64,000 nucleotides of DNA, from NCBI RefSeq assembly GCF_030732065.1, contig NZ_JAVBHX010000004.1, positions 124,001 to 188,000 of the forward strand, in the 5' to 3' direction. The notes beneath the pieces were generated by a model. It saw nothing but the letters and a program-made list of their open reading frames with translations. It did not search any database and was not told the origin of the DNA. The position numbers and the translations under genes were made by a program. The stretch is from Oceanimonas aquatica. Lineage in GTDB: Bacteria; Pseudomonadota; Gammaproteobacteria; Enterobacterales; Aeromonadaceae. This document shows positions 19,562 to 26,084 of this stretch, one piece after another (the stretch's first letter is position 1; each line of letters begins with the position of its first letter).

Positions 19562-19597
19562 GTGGACTGGTCCCGCAAGGGAAAACGACGCCATCAA

Positions 19598-19630
19598 CCA
19601 CGCCGGCCTTTGGGCCGGCGTGGTTTTTTT
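19598..19630 (+). terminator. Intrinsic terminator after lysS
   Basis: The perfect 11-bp arms CCACGCCGGCC/GGCCGGCGTGG have a TTTG loop and seven T residues behind. Confidence 0.92.
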
Positions 19631-19742: not shown

Positions 19743-20984
19743 ATGACAGATGTTACACCAATGCCCAAAAACCCCGAAAAAGGCTATGTGGCCCTGCTGG
19801 GGTGGAGCCTGAATGCGATTGAGGCGGTGGACCGCTTTGATCGACGCTACGTGGTGGTGGCCCCCGACTGGGCCGAGGAATATTGCCGGCAGCATGATAT
19901 TCCCTATGTGCCCTGGAACTTCGAGCGCCTGAATGATCGCTCCATGGAAATCGCACACAAGTTGCGCGACATGGGGGTGGATGTGGCCATTCCCCTGTAT
20001 GAAGAAACCGTGGAGTGGGCCGGCGCCATCAACTCGGTGCTGCTGGACAACCCCCGGCTGTTCGGGCAGGCCATGCTGCTGCGCGACAAGGCGCTGATGA
20101 AACGCCGGGCGCAGCTGGGCGGGATCCGGGTTGGTATTTTTGAGGAAGCCCACGACAAGGACGATGTGATCCGCTTTCTCAAGCGGGTCAACCAGACCCT
20201 GCTGAAACTGGATGGTGATCCCAATGATCCCATTCACCTCAAGGCGTTCGACAAGGCCGGTTGCCTCGGGCACAGGGTTATTCGTACCCCGGACGAGGTG
20301 GATTCCATTCCCGACGAGGAATTTCCGGTGCTGATGGAGTCTCATCTGGATGGCTGGGAGTTCGCCGTCGAGGCCTGGATACACAAGGGCAAGATCATGT
20401 TCCTGAATATTTCGGAATATGTCACCCTGGGGTATTCGGTCTTTGTGCCGGCCACGCCGGAGCTGGAAAAATACCGTCCTCAGATCACGGCCCAGATTGA
20501 AAAGCTCATCAAGACCTTTGATATTGAATTCGGCTTTGTGCACCCGGAATACTTTGTGACCAGCGACGGTGAAATGTATTTCGGTGAAGTGGCCTACCGG
20601 CCGCCCGGCTTCAAGGTATTTGAGCTGCTGGAGCGGGCCTATGGATTCAACGCCTATCAGGGGCTGGTACTGGCCTTCGATCCCAAAACCACCGATGAGG
20701 AAATTGCCGACTTTTTCCCCCGTGAGGTGGTGGATGCCAGGGGCTATGCGGGTTGCTTCGGGGTGTATCCGCGGCGCCGGGTGGTGAGTCGCCTGGCCGT
20801 TCCGGAAGAAACGGAAGACCATGACTATTTTGAATCCCACGAACTGACGGCCCCGCTGGAAGAGACGGTCACCAAGCGCACCGCCTTTGGCACGCACTGG
20901 GGGCTGGTGTACTTCTTCGGAGACGATCCCTACGTGATGCGCGATCTGCTCAAGCATCAGGAAGAACTGGACTTTTACATCTAG
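19743..20984 (+). CDS. ATP-grasp family ligase of unknown substrate
   Basis: This 413-residue protein has a pre-ATP-grasp Rossmann-like domain (YVALLGWSLNAIEAVDRF; VDVAIPLYEETVEWAGAIN) and an ATP-grasp domain. K168 in HLKAFDKAGCLGH looks like the nucleotide-binding lysine. MESHLDGWEFAVEAW (E199, E207) and HPEYFVTSDGEMYFGEVAYRPPG (E269, E282, R286) give the metal/ATP residues, although the usual Asn two residues after E282 is Ala. Such enzymes join a carboxylate to an amine through an acyl phosphate. The ATG at 19743 has AGGGA upstream and is preferred over a longer frame reaching into the lysS terminator. A papain-like protein gene follows 77 bases later. The substrate is unknown. Confidence 0.85.
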   Translation: MTDVTPMPKNPEKGYVALLGWSLNAIEAVDRFDRRYVVVAPDWAEEYCRQHDIPYVPWNFERLNDRSMEIAHKLRDMGVDVAIPLYEETVEWAGAINSVLLDNPRLFGQAMLLRDKALMKRRAQLGGIRVGIFEEAHDKDDVIRFLKRVNQTLLKLDGDPNDPIHLKAFDKAGCLGHRVIRTPDEVDSIPDEEFPVLMESHLDGWEFAVEAWIHKGKIMFLNISEYVTLGYSVFVPATPELEKYRPQITAQIEKLIKTFDIEFGFVHPEYFVTSDGEMYFGEVAYRPPGFKVFELLERAYGFNAYQGLVLAFDPKTTDEEIADFFPREVVDARGYAGCFGVYPRRRVVSRLAVPEETEDHDYFESHELTAPLEETVTKRTAFGTHWGLVYFFGDDPYVMRDLLKHQEELDFYI

Positions 20985-21012
20985 GATCGGTGAGAGCCAC
21001 CGTCAACACGTT

Positions 21013-21044
21013 GATGGAATGGCCCCGCCCGGGGTCATTCCATC
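21013..21044 (+). promoter_or_regulatory. Intercistronic hairpin between the ATP-grasp and papain-like genes
   Basis: GATGGAATG pairs with CATTCCATC, a G-T pair follows, and an inner CCCC/GGGG stem closes on GCCC, about 14 pairs in all. There is no T-run, so mRNA processing or differential expression is more likely than termination. Confidence 0.5.
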
Positions 21045-21061
21045 CCGAATGAGGTATTCCC

Positions 21062-23086
21062 TTGATTTCCGCGCAAGACGCTCCACGCAGCGATAATGCT
21101 ACCCTGACCAAACGCCTGGCGAGTCTGGATGATGCCGTGCAGAGCATGATTGAGACCCGCGACTATGCCAAACATCTGAAATTGCGCCGGGTGCTGGATG
21201 CGGCCCGGCGCGTGTTGCTGCTGCCCGGTGGCTGTGCCGCCATTGAGGCCCGGGCTCAAACGCTGGAAGCGGCCGGGGTTTTTCTGGGAACCGACTGGGC
21301 CAGCCCGCACATTCTGTTGCCGGCGCTGACGGCCTATTCGCTGAGCAGTGCCGAGGCCGATACCGTGGTCATGGAGGCACTCAGCGAGCTGCGGCTGCTA
21401 GCCGTGGCGCAGGGGCATTTTTCCCATTCACTGATATCGGCGGAGCAGGCCCGGCACTATCTGTCTCAGGTGATGGCCATCAATTTGTCGCTGTTGTTTA
21501 CGCCGCCGACGGAAGCGGAGCGGGAGCAGCAGGGGCGGCTGGCGCTGATGACCCGGGCGCTGTTTGGCTACCTGAGTGAGGTGATCGGCTATGAGAAAGT
21601 GCTCGATCAGCTGGTTGACGAGATCTGGCGGATCCTTCAGCAGCGCCCCATACAGGTGGAGCAGGTCAGGCAGATGATCACCCAGATCGCCATCTGCCGG
21701 AACAACCCGGAGATCGAACTGGGGGCCAGCGGCGCCGGGGCCGATCGTCTGATCAGCAGCCTTTACGGCACCACTCAGGGCTGCCGGGAGGATCCCGGCG
21801 TTGAGGTGTACCGGCAGCGGCTGGAGGCCATGGACCGAGGCCAGCTGCAATATGAAGCCGCCGGCTTTGCCCGCGCCATGCACGATACCGGCCTGGTGTC
21901 GCCCTATCATACGATGCTGGTGCATTTTCTGCTCACTCAGGACGATCATCTGCTGAGCGAGGCCCTGGGCCTGTCCAGCACCGGGCGGGACTGCATGCTC
22001 TGTTACCGTGAACTGGTGCACAGCCTGATTCGGGAAGCCATTCACCCTCAAACCGCTCAGGCGCTGTACGGTCTGGCACTGACGCTGGAGCGCGGCATTT
22101 TGTACCAGCCACCGGTGGCACCGGCGCTCTGGCGCCAGCTGGCCCTGCCGCTGTCAGTGTATTCGCGGCAACGTCTGGAACAGGCCTTTGGCACCGCCCC
22201 GGCCCCTCGGGCCTGGCTGTTGGCGGGGGTGTTGTCCATGCTGGGCCAGCCTCTTGGGGTCGGGCAGGGCAACAACCCCACCTGTCAGTCTGCCCGGGCA
22301 TTGTCCATGTGGTCGTACAATGATCCCGACTACCTGCTGCAGATCGTGGTGTGGGCCGTCCGGGACGATGAAGTGATCATGCACTTTGAAGGTCAGCCCA
22401 TTTCCTCGCGGCAAAGTGCCGGCGGCGTGGCTAATTCGCTGCCGGTGGATCTGGATCCGGTGTCCTTGCTGGTGGTGCCGCACCTGGATCGTATTTATGC
22501 GGAGATGGGCCGCCGTTGTGTCGGCCGGGAAGGGGATCCTCACCGCTGGATCAACCCCGAGTTTCACGGCTGGTGGACGGGGCGGGGCTTTCGCATCAAT
22601 GTGGATGTGGCAACCGGCAAGCTGACGGATCTGGAGAATTTTCAGCGCCATTTCTATGCCTGCTATCACCCCTATTACAACGGCAACCAGCCGGTGGTGC
22701 ACCCCCAGCCCGCCGGTATCGCGGTAACCGACAGCGCGGCGAGATTTATCGGCTGGCATGCCATTACCCTGCTCAGGGTGAGCCTGGATCCCCAGGACCA
22801 GATGCGGGTGTATTTCTATAACCCCAACAATGACAGCGGGCAAAACTGGGGGGACGGCGTGGTGGTCAGTACCGCCGGGAACGGCGAGCGCTTTGGCGAA
22901 GCGTCCCTGCCGTTCGAGCAGCTGGCTTCCCGTCTTTATATCTTTCACTACGATCCGCTGGAGCGGGGCGAACTGGCCGCCATCAGCCAGGAAGAGCTGG
23001 AGCGGGTGATCGCCTATACCACCCGCAGCTGGGGCGCCGATCGCCTGCCGCCGGTGGACCTGCAGGCCAGTTCCGGCGGTACCTGA
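21062..23086 (+). CDS. Large protein with C-terminal papain-like (Cys-His-Asn) domain
   Basis: The protein has 674 residues. The start is TTG at 21062 with GAGG 7 bases upstream; no signal peptide or membrane helix is seen. Residues 1 to about 390 look mainly helical and match nothing I recognise. The C-terminal part shows a papain-type arrangement: Q402 six residues before C408 (GQGNNPTCQSARAL), H566 (GWHAITLL), then N587 (YFYNPNNDSGQNWGDG). Papain has Q19, C25, H159 and N175, so order and spacing agree. The likely activity is cysteine peptidase, amidase or transglutaminase-type acyl transfer. It pairs with the ATP-grasp gene upstream, suggesting make-and-break or relay chemistry on an amide bond. 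I do not know a named family. Confidence 0.75.
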   Translation: MISAQDAPRSDNATLTKRLASLDDAVQSMIETRDYAKHLKLRRVLDAARRVLLLPGGCAAIEARAQTLEAAGVFLGTDWASPHILLPALTAYSLSSAEADTVVMEALSELRLLAVAQGHFSHSLISAEQARHYLSQVMAINLSLLFTPPTEAEREQQGRLALMTRALFGYLSEVIGYEKVLDQLVDEIWRILQQRPIQVEQVRQMITQIAICRNNPEIELGASGAGADRLISSLYGTTQGCREDPGVEVYRQRLEAMDRGQLQYEAAGFARAMHDTGLVSPYHTMLVHFLLTQDDHLLSEALGLSSTGRDCMLCYRELVHSLIREAIHPQTAQALYGLALTLERGILYQPPVAPALWRQLALPLSVYSRQRLEQAFGTAPAPRAWLLAGVLSMLGQPLGVGQGNNPTCQSARALSMWSYNDPDYLLQIVVWAVRDDEVIMHFEGQPISSRQSAGGVANSLPVDLDPVSLLVVPHLDRIYAEMGRRCVGREGDPHRWINPEFHGWWTGRGFRINVDVATGKLTDLENFQRHFYACYHPYYNGNQPVVHPQPAGIAVTDSAARFIGWHAITLLRVSLDPQDQMRVYFYNPNNDSGQNWGDGVVVSTAGNGERFGEASLPFEQLASRLYIFHYDPLERGELAAISQEELERVIAYTTRSWGADRLPPVDLQASSGGT

Positions 23087-23104: not shown

Positions 23105-23134
23105 AAAACACCGAACCGGCCGGTTCGGTGTTTT
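23105..23134. terminator. Bidirectional terminator between convergent units
   Basis: A 30-base perfect palindrome, with half-arm AAAACACCGAACCGG, ends in TTTT on both strands. It separates the papain-like gene from the aminotransferase gene. Confidence 0.9.
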
Positions 23135-23151: not shown

Positions 23152-24558
23152 TTACCGGGCCCTGAGATCGCCGCTGCGTATCAGCTCGTCGGTGACGGTG
23201 TTCACCGCCTTTTCGGTGCGCGCCACGATATCGTCTATGTCATTGGGGGTTACCACCAGCGGCGGGGCAAAGCCCAGAATATCGCCATGGGGCATGGCCC
23301 GGGCGATCAGCCCCTGCTCCAGGCAGGCGGCGGCGATGCGCGGCCCGACCTTGAGAGCGGGGTCCAGGTGAGTGCGACTGGCCGGGTTACTGGAAAACTC
23401 CAGCGCCGCCAGCAGGCCGATGCCCCGGCAGTCGCCCACCAGTGGGTGGCCGGCAAAGGTGGCTTTCATGCGTTGCTGCAGATGGGCGCCGGTGCCTTCG
23501 GCGTTACCCACCAGGTTTTCCCGGTCGATAATATCCAGGTTGCACAGCGCCGCCGCCGCCCCCATGGGGTGACCGGAATAGGTGTAGCCGTGACCGATGG
23601 CGCCCCAGTCGTCGGTGCCTCGCTCCAGGGTTTGCCAGACTTTCTCGCCCACAATCACGCCCGACAGCGGCTGATAGGCCGAGGTCAGGCCCTTGGCCAC
23701 CGTCATCAGATCCGGCTTCATGTCGTAATACAGCGAGCCAAATTCGGCCCCCAGCCGGCCAAAGCCGCACACCACCTCGTCGGCAATCAGCAGCACATCA
23801 TACTTGTCGAGCACCCTGCGAATTTCGGGCCAGTAGCCTGCCGGCGGCGGCACTATGCCCCCGGTGCCCAGCACCGGCTCGGCGATCATGGCCGCCACTG
23901 TGTCCGGGCCTTCGGCCAGGATCTTTGCTTCCAGCTGGTCGGCGCACCAGCGGGAAAACTCTTGCTCGCTCATGGCCCCGTCGGCCCGGCGATAGTAGTA
24001 GGGCGCCACGGTATGATGAATGCGTTCCAGCGGCAGATCGAAATGGGCATGGAACAGCGGCAGCCCGGTCAGCGAGCCCGCGGCCACGCTGGAGCCATGG
24101 TAGCCTCGATCCCGGGAGATGATTTTTTTCTTGTCCGGCCGGCCCAGCACATTGTTGTAGTACCACACCAGCTTGATCTGGGTTTCGTTGGCGTCGCTGC
24201 CCGACAGGCCGTAATAGACCTTGCTCATGCCGGCGGGGGCCTTGTCGAGAATGCGCCGGGAAAGGGTGATCAGCGCCTCGTTACTGTGGCCCACATAGGT
24301 GTGGTAGTAGGCCAGCTTTTTCGCCTGTTCATACATGGCCTCGGCCATTTCCATGCGGCCATAGCCGATGTTGACGCAATAGAGGCCGGCAAAGGCGTCG
24401 ATCAGCTCGGTGCCCTGGGAGTCATAAATGCGAATGCCTTCGGCACCGGTGATAATGCGCCCGCTCATTTCGCCCCGGGCATACTGGCCAAGGGGAGTGG
24501 AGGCGTGAAAGATGGTGTGGCGATCGGTTTCCAGCCATTGCTGCGTGTTCAGGGTCAT
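23152..24558 (-). CDS. Class III PLP-dependent aminotransferase (omega-amino acid/polyamine type)
   Basis: This 468-residue fold-type I aminotransferase carries AFAGLYCVNIGYGRMEMAEAM, LSGSDANETQIKLVWYY, RGYHGSSVAAGSLTG, the PLP Asp in LLIADEVVCGFGR, and the Schiff-base lysine in TVAKGLTSAYQPLSG. The wording is close to putrescine-pyruvate (SpuC) and omega-amino acid:pyruvate aminotransferases, which produce an aldehyde and alanine. AGGAGG precedes the ATG. The dehydrogenase gene 26 bases upstream would oxidise the aldehyde product, so the pair probably degrades a primary amine or omega-amino acid such as putrescine or GABA. The precise substrate is not readable from the sequence. Confidence 0.88.
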   Translation of the reverse strand: MTLNTQQWLETDRHTIFHASTPLGQYARGEMSGRIITGAEGIRIYDSQGTELIDAFAGLYCVNIGYGRMEMAEAMYEQAKKLAYYHTYVGHSNEALITLSRRILDKAPAGMSKVYYGLSGSDANETQIKLVWYYNNVLGRPDKKKIISRDRGYHGSSVAAGSLTGLPLFHAHFDLPLERIHHTVAPYYYRRADGAMSEQEFSRWCADQLEAKILAEGPDTVAAMIAEPVLGTGGIVPPPAGYWPEIRRVLDKYDVLLIADEVVCGFGRLGAEFGSLYYDMKPDLMTVAKGLTSAYQPLSGVIVGEKVWQTLERGTDDWGAIGHGYTYSGHPMGAAAALCNLDIIDRENLVGNAEGTGAHLQQRMKATFAGHPLVGDCRGIGLLAALEFSSNPASRTHLDPALKVGPRIAAACLEQGLIARAMPHGDILGFAPPLVVTPNDIDDIVARTEKAVNTVTDELIRSGDLRAR

Positions 24559-24584: not shown

Positions 24585-26084
24585 TTAAAGCCCGCCCAGG
24601 CAGGCGTACTTCAGGTTGCTGAAATCATCAAAACCGTGGCGGCTGCCTTCCCGGCCCAGCCCCGAGTGCTTGATGCCACCAAAGGGGATGCAATGGCCGG
24701 TCATTTTTACCGAGTTGACCGCCACCATGCCGAACTCAAGGCCGTCCAGCAGCGGCCAGATTTGCCGTTGATCATGGCCGAACACATAGGCGGCCAGGCC
24801 GTACTCGGTGTCGTTGGCCAGTGTCAGCAGCTGGTTGGTGTCGTCATAGGGCAGTACGGCGGCCACCGGGCAGAAGGTTTCTTCCCGGAATACCCGCATG
24901 GCCGGGGTGACATCGGCCAGCAGCACCGGCAGAAAGAAGTTTTCGCCGGGGCCGGTGTGCTTGTTGCCGGCAAACAGCCGGGCGCCGTGCGCCAGGGCGT
25001 CGTCCACCAGCGCCTGGGCGTTCTCGACTGCCCGGCGGTGAATAAGCGGACCCATGGTCACGCCGGCTTCAAGGCCGTTGCCCACTCGAATGCGGGCCAT
25101 TTCGCCGGCAAAGGCATCGAGAAATTCCTCATAGTGCGCCCGGGGCACCAGAATGCGGTTGGCGGCCAGGCAGTCCTGACCGGCGGTCTGGAACTTGGCG
25201 GCCACCGCCGCCTGAGCGGCCTCTTTCAGGTCCATGTCGGGCAGCACGATAAAGGGCGCATTGCCGCCCAGCTCCATGGCGCACTTCTTCACCGTGTTGG
25301 CGCAGGCGGCCAGCAGTTGCTTGCCCACTTGAGTGGAGCCGGTAAACGACAGTGCCCGCACTCTGTCGTCCCGGCACAGGGCCTCACCCAGCTCGGCGCC
25401 GGCACCGGTGATCACGTTGATCACGCCGGGGGCAAAGCCGGCCCGCTCGGCCAGCTCCGCCAGCGCCAGGGCGGAAAATGGCGTTTCGCTGGCGGGTTTG
25501 ATCACCAGGGTGCAGCCAATGGCCAGGGCCGCCGCCGCCTTGCGGGTGATCATGGCGTGGGGAAAGTTCCAGGGGGTGATCAAGGCCGCCACGCCCACCG
25601 GCTCGCGCTGGGTAAGGAGTTTGGCCCCGGGAATATGGCTGGGAATGGTGTCGCCGCAGGCGCGGCGGCCTTCTTCGGCAAACCAGCGCACAAAGGAGGC
25701 GCCATAGTCTATTTCGCCCTGGGCATCGGCCCGGGGCTTGCCCTGCTCCAGTACCATGAGAGTGGCCAGGTCTTCCTTGTGCTCAAGAATGAGATCATGC
25801 CAGCGCATCAGCAGGGCGGCGCGTTCGTCCGCCATCAGGCCGCGCCAGTCAGCAAAGGCGGTCTGGGCGGCATCCACCGCGTGCGTCACCTGCTCGGCAT
25901 CGAGCCTGGGCACATGGCCAATCACGTCGTTGGTGGCCGGATTGAATACCGGCGAATCGCTGCGTCCGTGCACCCACTGGCCGTTGATATAGGCCAGCTC
26001 CCGCACCAGGCGCGGATCCGTCAGATAGGGCATCAGGGCGTCGGTTACCTTGCCGTTGCCAAAAATGCGTTCCATGGCTTTCAT
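24585..26084 (-). CDS. gabD: NAD(P)-dependent succinate-semialdehyde-type dehydrogenase
   Basis: This 499-residue aldehyde dehydrogenase carries the cofactor region PWNFPHAMITRKAAAALAIGC, the general base Glu in MELGGNAPFIV, and the catalytic Cys in GQDCLAANR. The closing KMTGHCIPFGGIKHSGLGREGSRHG is typical of GabD-class succinate-semialdehyde dehydrogenases. It starts with a good AAGGAG seven bases before the ATG. The N-terminus is about 15 residues longer than in E. coli GabD. Together with the downstream aminotransferase it would convert an omega-amino acid to a dicarboxylate entering the TCA cycle. Glutarate-semialdehyde or another aldehyde is possible. Confidence 0.85.
   Translation of the reverse strand: MKAMERIFGNGKVTDALMPYLTDPRLVRELAYINGQWVHGRSDSPVFNPATNDVIGHVPRLDAEQVTHAVDAAQTAFADWRGLMADERAALLMRWHDLILEHKEDLATLMVLEQGKPRADAQGEIDYGASFVRWFAEEGRRACGDTIPSHIPGAKLLTQREPVGVAALITPWNFPHAMITRKAAAALAIGCTLVIKPASETPFSALALAELAERAGFAPGVINVITGAGAELGEALCRDDRVRALSFTGSTQVGKQLLAACANTVKKCAMELGGNAPFIVLPDMDLKEAAQAAVAAKFQTAGQDCLAANRILVPRAHYEEFLDAFAGEMARIRVGNGLEAGVTMGPLIHRRAVENAQALVDDALAHGARLFAGNKHTGPGENFFLPVLLADVTPAMRVFREETFCPVAAVLPYDDTNQLLTLANDTEYGLAAYVFGHDQRQIWPLLDGLEFGMVAVNSVKMTGHCIPFGGIKHSGLGREGSRHGFDDFSNLKYACLGGL

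What the first reader, a model, noticed from the sequence alone, without database searches (positions are those of the whole stretch)
19743..23086. ATP-grasp ligase paired with a papain-like protein: candidate undescribed amide-bond system
Two adjacent same-strand genes encode an ATP-grasp enzyme (makes amide-type bonds) and a large protein with a papain-type Cys/His/Asn domain (breaks or transfers them). They form a discrete cassette between the lysS terminator and a 30-base palindromic terminator. ATP-grasp or other amidoligases paired with peptidase-fold proteins are known from comparative genomics as peptide-tagging or metabolite systems (Iyer, Aravind and colleagues), but I cannot match this pair to a named one.
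Basis: partly seen in the sequence, partly recalled or inferred. Interest (0 to 1): 0.8.

Follow-up and report, generated by a model that had tools for sequence, protein, structure and literature searches.

The report
Conserved ligase–cysteine-enzyme gene pair
Two neighbouring bacterial genes, one for a likely amide-bond-forming enzyme and one for a large protein with a protease-like set of active-site residues, are present or absent together in the bacteria sampled, and what they make or unmake is not known.

Summary
P1 (19743-20984, 413 aa) is an ATP-grasp ligase, nearest in the PDB to L-amino-acid ligases. P2 (21062-23086, 674 aa) has no significant Pfam, NCBIfam or PADLOC match; it has a helical N-terminal half and a C-terminal domain with invariant Gln402, Cys408, His566 and Asn587, the papain pattern. 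In the 82 loci of the first two searches P1 always lies directly upstream of P2. P1 and P2 occur in the same 11 of 398 Pseudomonadota genomes (one chance P2 hit dropped) and the same 51 of 81 Marinobacteraceae genomes. Three gene orders exist. No specific third gene family spans both phyla. P1 is very constrained: 217 of 413 residues have at most one exception in 97 sequences. Most likely P1 makes an amide-type conjugate and P2 cleaves or transfers that kind of bond, as in glutathionylspermidine synthetase/amidase or the ATP-grasp/alphaE/transglutaminase genes of Anbu operons. The coupling is well supported. P2's papain fold rests on residues and a medium-confidence model; fold and profile searches did not confirm it. 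Substrates are unknown. A polyamine hint was tested and did not generalise.

The parts
19596..19625 (+). lysS intrinsic terminator (13-bp perfect hairpin plus T run), upstream border
19743..20984 (+). P1: ATP-grasp ligase, 413 aa; K155, E199, E269, E282 and R286 invariant in 97 of 97 sequences
21013..21044 (+). Inverted repeat (15-nt arms, 93% complementary, 2 nt between) between P1 and P2; folding z-score of the intergenic -3.2
21062..23086 (+). P2: 674-aa protein, no significant family match; helical N-terminal half (about 9-395) and C-terminal domain (about 396-660) with the cysteine-enzyme residues
22265..22285 (+). Codons 402-408 of P2 (Q402 and nucleophile-candidate C408; same six-residue spacing as papain Q19/C25, papain numbers recalled)
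   Evidence: coordinates by counting from 21062
22757..22822 (+). Codons 566-587 of P2 (H566 at start of strand 566-575; N587 just after strand 581-586)
   Evidence: coordinates by counting from 21062
23105..23134 (.). 30-base perfect palindrome, downstream border between convergent genes

Best explanation
P1 and P2 form a self-contained two-gene conjugation module. P1 activates a carboxylate with ATP and joins it to an amine or similar nucleophile (amide bond through an acyl phosphate). P2 is a cytosolic cysteine enzyme of the papain type whose C408, assisted by H566, N587 and Q402, attacks the same kind of bond and either hydrolyses it or passes the acyl group to another acceptor; its helical N-terminal half probably recognises the substrate or partner. 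P1 and P2 thus make and unmake (or complete) one linkage. Shown: both genes, invariant residues, matching genome distributions, linkage in three gene orders, no specific third partner found. Inferred: ligase chemistry (from the fold family), papain chemistry (from residues and model), the shared bond, the cytosolic location (no strongly hydrophobic segment in either window protein). Unknown: the substrates.
For: Pairing: 82 of 82 loci of the first two searches, all tandem on one strand; over 91 tandem pairs the gap is 12-207 nt, median 38. Phylogenetic profile: P1 (E <= 1e-40) and P2 (E <= 1e-3) in the same 11 of 398 genomes, after dropping one chance P2 hit, G337, E 7.6e-4; and the same 51 of 81, with neither in the other 30 (three genomes are in both sets). 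In 18 of 18 genomes picked because they had P2, both are present. Linkage survives rearrangement: tandem P1>P2; divergent (L101, L115, L140, L227, L228); tandem P2>P1 (L229-L231). P1 fold. P2 catalytic set invariant in 35 of 35; Cys at the N-terminus of helix 408-420, His and Asn on or after consecutive strands. Constraint on P1: in seven between-phylum pairs 80-89% of residues agree while fourfold sites agree at 0.37-0.52, against 0.29-0.41 expected from composition, i.e. nearly saturated.
Against: P2 copies without a nearby P1 are common in Marinobacteraceae: 21 of the 30 P2 loci fetched (L206-L226) have no P1 in about 1.5 kb on either side, so P2 is not tied one-to-one to a neighbouring P1. 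P1 copies without P2 beside them exist too (L138, L142; and L139, which ends about 200 bases from a contig end). The P1 and P2 trees place the window's lineage differently, the P1 tree being poorly resolved, so transfer as one unit is not shown. Foldseek gave no PDB or viral hit with E <= 0.001, and hhalign of the P2 C-terminus against Peptidase_C39_2 and DUF3335 gave probabilities of 0.11 and 0.20%, against 99.9% for the positive control. Parts of the catalytic domain are among the least confident of the model (below 50 at 398-408 and 554-563).
Confidence: 0.55

Rival explanations
1. Protein-tagging pair: P1 attaches an amino acid or small tag to a cellular protein and P2 removes or rearranges it, as proposed in print for the ATP-grasp/alphaE/transglutaminase genes of Anbu operons.
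For: P1 is very invariant (217 of 413 residues with at most one exception in 97 sequences), which would fit a macromolecular partner (inference; no other ligase was measured for comparison). P2 carries a large helical domain beside a cysteine domain, like alphaE plus transglutaminase (PMC6376114, passages read; that alphaE is helical is recalled).
Against: No specific third gene family spans both phyla. No Pfam match of P1 or P2 to permuted ATP-grasp, alphaE or transglutaminase models at E <= 1.
Confidence: 0.25
2. Activation-transfer pathway: P1 makes an activated or carrier-bound acyl group and P2 is an acyltransferase rather than a hydrolase, as BtrJ and BtrH in butirosin biosynthesis (recalled; one search found no paper on them; a BtrH family with papain-like fold is mentioned in PMC2922099, passages read).
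For: The papain fold includes acyltransferases (PMC2922099 and PMC10318531 passages); P2 duplicates freely (5 full copies in one Marinobacter genome), which fits several acceptors for one P1 product.
Against: No specific third gene family spans both phyla, and no carrier protein is among the 25 commonest Pfam families of neighbours; but proteins under 70 aa or 110 aa were not called, so a small carrier could be missed.
Confidence: 0.2
3. Polyamine amide synthetase/amidase, a non-homologous counterpart of glutathionylspermidine synthetase/amidase.
For: A Marinobacter P2 paralogue follows a PotI-like putrescine permease gene (best NCBIfam models PotI and PotF, scores below their cut-offs; PotI in 4 of 20 paralogue loci). 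A histone-deacetylase-family gene adjoins P2 in L101 and one 66% identical lies about 3 kb from a P1 copy in L142.
Against: Sixteen of 20 of those paralogue loci have no PotI match in about 1.5 kb on either side, and the four that have it carry closely related P2 (89-100% identical), so probably one event. The 25 commonest Pfam families of neighbours of the canonical pair show no such theme. No CHAP or GSP-synthetase Pfam match at E <= 1.
Confidence: 0.12
4. Graspetide-like peptide maturation: P1 cross-links a precursor peptide and P2 removes its leader.
For: ATP-grasp enzymes with peptidases are common in such clusters (PMC8939145, passages read).
Against: Little room for a precursor gene between the two: 77 nt here, 38 nt at the median. 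In the window's flanks the small reading frames are antisense or straddle the lysS terminator. Flanks of other loci were not searched for small frames.
Confidence: 0.05
5. P1 and P2 have no shared biochemistry and merely hitch-hike on one mobile cassette.
For: Patchy distribution (2 of 23 genomes of the window's genus, the window's own included), and between-phylum transfer suggested by the P2 tree.
Against: Matching presence in Marinobacteraceae, including four genomes of the main genus that lack both, and linkage in three gene orders. Mobility genes were not searched for as such.
Confidence: 0.07

Closest known systems
Glutathionylspermidine synthetase/amidase GspSA (E. coli; PMC6272389, passages read)
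   Same: A ligase that works through an acyl phosphate plus a cysteine amidase (CHAP superfamily) acting on one amide; make-and-break logic. The ATP-grasp fold of its synthetase is recalled.
   Different: GspSA is one fused protein; P1 and P2 are separate and neither matches a GspSA-type Pfam model at E <= 1. P2 has a large helical half.
Anbu operon: ATP-grasp, alphaE, transglutaminase-like, Anbu (PMC6376114, passages read)
   Same: Similar building blocks: ATP-grasp ligase, helical protein (alphaE, helical by recall), cysteine enzyme; hypotheses on its role unconfirmed at that paper's date.
   Different: Four genes with a proteasome-like protein; here two genes, no third specific family across phyla, no Pfam match to those families at E <= 1.
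DUF3335 (PF11814) papain-like proteins, often fused to GNAT domains that may act as peptide ligases (PMC10318531, passages read; pairing with RimK-type ATP-grasp recalled)
   Same: Papain-like protein in a peptide-ligase context; a PF11814 member also exists elsewhere in the window's genome.
   Different: P2 shows no profile similarity to it; P1 has no RimK match at E <= 1.
L-amino-acid ligases RizA (4wd3; name recalled, 'L-amino acid ligase' in the listing) and BL00235 (3vot)
   Same: Nearest solved ATP-grasp sequences to P1; 4wd3 shares the E-x-A-x-R variant (GEIAMR against GEVAYR).
   Different: Only about 115 residues align, E 0.0015-0.003; substrate unknown for P1.

Membership tests
ATP-grasp superfamily (P1) | Sequence profile match | tested here: met
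   PF13535 E 3.5e-5 but 23.9 bits, below the 27-bit cut-off; PDB profile hits to ATP-grasp ligases E 0.0015-0.0036
ATP-grasp superfamily (P1) | Conserved Lys and acidic metal-site residues | tested here: met
   K155, E199, E269, E282, R286 invariant in 97 of 97; their roles are assigned by position, recalled
ATP-grasp superfamily (P1) | ATP-dependent ligation | not testable with these tools
   bench assay needed
NCBIfam PRK07206 (NF005543) subfamily | Score over curated cut-off 302 | tested here: not met
   24.6 bits
Papain-like superfamily (P2) | Cys/His/Asn triad plus oxyanion Gln | tested here: met
   Q402, C408, H566, N587 invariant in 35 of 35 sequences
Papain-like superfamily (P2) | Papain fold | tested here: inconclusive
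   Element order fits in a pLDDT 77.3 model; no Foldseek match with E <= 0.001
Peptidase_C39_2 (PF13529) / DUF3335 (PF11814) | Profile similarity | tested here: not met
   hhalign probability 0.11% and 0.20%; control pair 99.9%; P2 profile shallow (Neff 1.8)
Glutathionylspermidine synthetase/amidase | CHAP and GSP-synthetase domains in one chain | tested here: not met
   separate genes, no such Pfam match at E <= 1
Anbu operon | Linked Anbu, alphaE, transglutaminase and ATP-grasp genes | tested here: not met
   no specific third family across phyla; no Pfam match of P1 or P2 to these families at E <= 1
Graspetide RiPP cluster | Precursor peptide gene beside the ligase | tested here: not met
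   window flanks only; gaps between the genes over 91 pairs
Known or candidate anti-phage defence systems | PADLOC model match | tested here: not met
   none at E <= 1

The most novel reading that the evidence does not exclude
P1 and P2 are a minimal, undescribed reversible conjugation system: an ultra-conserved ATP-grasp ligase attaches a small group to a conserved cellular protein or cofactor, and a new papain-like family with its own recognition domain removes or re-attaches it; multiplied P2 copies in Marinobacter are target-specific erasers or transferases sharing one or a few writers.
Probability: 0.2. Interest if true: 0.88.

Novelty: new variant of a known kind. Interest (0 to 1): 0.62.

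Why it matters
A two-gene module whose parts are present or absent together in the samples, that is found in two phyla and keeps one protein about 80-89% identical between them while silent sites nearly saturate probably does something specific. Because the module is small and looks soluble, its chemistry can be tested with two purified proteins and two deletions.

Tried and rejected
Third partner: of 354 clusters of called reading frames in the 82 loci (53 gammaproteobacterial, 29 actinobacterial by record title or kinship), 7 span both phyla: P2, P1, two antisense frames on the cassette, an ABC-transporter-like family (15 loci) and two thiolase-like families (4 and 2 loci; names by reading). 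My caller is crude: it recovered P2 in 75 and P1 in 73 of 82 loci. Pfam counts on 91 gammaproteobacterial and 85 actinobacterial neighbours, chosen from 159 and 106 listed, showed no common theme; only the 25 commonest families of each are printed.

Polyamine link: looked promising from a few loci, then PotI was found in 4 of 20 paralogue loci; kept only as a weak rival.

Phage or plasmid origin: no relative in viral contigs by single-protein queries. P2 matched 1 of 72,556 plasmid records, a 1.8-Mb Halomonas replicon without annotation there; P1 matched 13, the same one at 86% and 12 at under 60%, which I take for other ATP-grasp proteins. The phage-record collection was not searched.

Conserved intergenic hairpin: 15 of 83 intergenics tested have z below -2 and most do not, so it is not a family feature.

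Structure: the first job was sent without an alignment by oversight and gave pLDDT 36; not used. Foldseek rows on the good model are mostly helical proteins with TM about 0.1-0.2. The catalytic domain could not be folded alone, both jobs being spent.

Defence system: PADLOC negative.

Chance hit dropped: G337 (E 7.6e-4, 34% over 92 residues) lies in a frame that reads like glutamyl-tRNA reductase (name by reading, recalled).

Rows dropped: four loci (L016, L046, L049, L093) were left out of the distance and silent-site analysis for a cut gene, internal stops or a gap, leaving 88. The trees used 31 chosen loci. The 35 P2 proteins and 23 rows of A1 were chosen by me for spread. The c39 set was picked by a motif search and contains at least one spurious frame (L152); the positive control still gave 99.9%.
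Full report
What is there. Two genes stand alone between lysS and a convergent aminotransferase gene. P1 (19743-20984) encodes 413 aa; P2 (21062-23086, TTG start behind a GAGG ribosome-site-like stretch) encodes 674 aa.

P1. Pfam gives one hit, ATP-grasp_4, E 3.5e-5 but just under the curated cut-off. A 22-sequence profile finds in the PDB the L-amino-acid ligases 3vot and 4wd3 and the ligase-like 4dim at E 0.0015-0.0036, over about 115 to 150 residues. Residues at the expected catalytic places (K155, E199, E269, E282, R286; roles recalled) are invariant in 97 of 97 sequences, and 217 of 413 positions have at most one exception. The usual Asn of the metal loop (recalled) is Ala (E-V-A-Y-R), as in 4wd3 (GEIAMR). 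P1 is a sharply bounded family: in 18 genomes searched to E 1e-10, all 24 matches were at E 2.6e-240 or better.

P2. No Pfam or PADLOC family at E <= 1; one NCBIfam row at E 0.17, far below its cut-off; no PDB sequence below E 0.5. A model from 60 sequences (mean pLDDT 77.3, pTM 0.63) shows helices from about 9 to 395, then a mixed domain with C408 at the start of helix 408-420, H566 at the start of strand 566-575 and N587 after strand 581-586. Q402, C408, H566 and N587 are invariant in 35 of 35 proteins spanning 50-100% identity, and the C-terminal domain (column identity about 0.80-0.85 between residues 385 and 640) is more conserved than the N-terminal half (0.58-0.72). They are not the only invariant residues: many others in that domain are too. 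Q six residues before C is papain's spacing (recalled). The fold is not confirmed: Foldseek found nothing with E <= 0.001, and profile comparison with Peptidase_C39_2 and DUF3335 was negative while the control pair scored 99.9%. Parts of the core are weak in the model, and the P2 profile is shallow (Neff 1.8), so this is inconclusive rather than contrary. Neither window protein has a strongly hydrophobic segment (highest 19-residue mean 1.2), which suggests cytosolic enzymes.

Conservation and pairing. With two from whole-genome searches (one the window itself), 82 loci hold P2 and all 82 hold P1 next to it, upstream and on the same strand (in L046 P1 is cut by the contig end, in L049 it is in two matches). 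Leaving the window out, P1 identities are 82-96% and P2 70-89%, across Halomonas and kin, Marinobacter, Marinimicrobium, Nocardia, Mycolicibacter, Pseudonocardia and Actinophytocola. Because only the nearest 80 were kept, this set leans towards close relatives; the fairer test is the genome samples. P2 was found in 12 of 398 Pseudomonadota genomes, one of them a chance hit, and P1 in 11 of 398, the same 11 (rows without a match are only partly listed, so that the two samples are identical is taken from the listed handles). In 81 Marinobacteraceae genomes, all listed, P1 and P2 were each found in 51, the same 51, and neither in 30 (three genomes belong to both samples). P2 was found in 3 of 296 Actinomycetota genomes, one of them the centre of the sample, and in 2 of 61 near relatives, including the window's own. 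The module is therefore patchy, and its two parts are present or absent together in these samples.

Rearrangement test. Besides P1>P2 tandem, the two genes stand divergent (L101, L115, L140, L227, L228) and in P2>P1 tandem order (L229-L231). In G738 (L236) the P1 and P2 reading frames overlap by 8 nt. Linkage that survives reshuffling argues for shared function. Against one-to-one pairing: Marinobacter carries extra P2 copies, five full ones in G453, and 21 of the 30 loci fetched have no P1 in their flanks of about 1.5 kb; P1 copies without P2 beside them also occur.

Age and transfer. In seven between-phylum pairs the fourfold sites of P1 agree at 0.37-0.52 against 0.29-0.41 expected from composition, while 80-89% of residues agree; the same pairs of P2 give 0.36-0.57 against 0.33-0.43. 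So silent sites are near saturation, not fully in every pair, and the conservation is mainly constraint rather than recent copying. In a 31-row P2 tree the window's lineage is sister to Actinomycetota with SH-aLRT 99 (quick method, no bootstrap, midpoint root), while the P1 tree is poorly resolved and places it with Gammaproteobacteria (SH-aLRT 86). Transfer between the phyla is likely, but its direction, and whether both genes moved at once, are open. P1 and P2 distances correlate at 0.87 over 88 loci.

Mechanism. The best-supported reading is a ligase and a cysteine hydrolase or transferase acting on one kind of bond. The known precedents are GspSA, where a ligase domain and a CHAP amidase make and break glutathionylspermidine (PMC6272389, passages), and the ATP-grasp, alphaE and transglutaminase genes of Anbu operons, proposed to tag proteins (PMC6376114, passages). 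P2 looks like a fusion of a helical and a cysteine module, which makes the second parallel tempting; it is analogy, not membership (membership table). Substrates are unknown. A polyamine hint (PotI next to a P2 paralogue, histone-deacetylase-family genes near two copies) did not generalise. No specific third gene family spans both phyla.

Literature. Nothing describing this pair was seen in open-access full-text searches (search listings; passages of PMC10318531, PMC2922099 and PMC8939145). The key survey by Iyer and colleagues (2009) is not held, so I cannot exclude that it lists this pair.

Verdict. A real, tightly coupled, to my searches unnamed two-gene module; a new variant of a known kind (ATP-grasp ligase plus peptidase-fold partner). 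My estimates: functional coupling about 0.9, P1 as ligase about 0.9, P2 as papain-type cysteine enzyme about 0.75, the shared make-and-break mechanism about 0.55.

Noticed in passing
window 21013-21044; L003 intergenic; other loci: A strong hairpin lies between P1 and P2 here (z -3.2), and the same-genus locus L003 has a different-sequence hairpin-forming stretch in the same place (z -1.6); 15 of 83 intergenics have z below -2. Possibly tunes P2 dose.
   Followed up: partly
window 23152-24558 and 24585-26084: A class-III aminotransferase (over the NF005684/PRK07482 cut-off) and a succinate-semialdehyde-dehydrogenase-like gene (below that cut-off) converge on the cassette; a GABA or putrescine-type catabolic pair by inference.
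   Followed up: partly
L114, L115, L116, L117, L118 and L052 (one Marinobacter genome, G453): Five full P2 copies and a 60-residue fragment match in one genome; the four extra full copies lie beside different genes.
   Followed up: partly
L099:7280-10252, L100:6096-8870, L206-L209: In four related Marinobacter genomes a P2 paralogue directly follows a PotI-like putrescine permease gene.
   Followed up: yes
L101:6591-7709 and L142:12210-13310: Histone-deacetylase-family genes, 66% identical to each other, adjoin P2 in one genome and lie about 3 kb from a P1 copy in another.
   Followed up: no
L138, L139: P1 copies without P2 beside them in two Halomonadaceae-like genomes (family by inference) lie near a BCCT-type transporter and near genes that read like glycine-betaine/dimethylglycine catabolism (pooled Pfam counts; betaine names by reading).
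   Followed up: no
L117:2286-5632: A different gene that reads like an ATP-grasp protein overlaps an S15-type hydrolase gene by 4 nt, within 4 kb of a P2 copy (one S15 match in the pooled; no NCBIfam hit for the first): perhaps another ligase-peptidase pair.
   Followed up: no
G000:C1:298427-299041 (window's own genome, locus L184): A DUF3335 (PF11814) papain-like protein, a family often fused to GNAT domains, is encoded elsewhere in the same genome.
   Followed up: no
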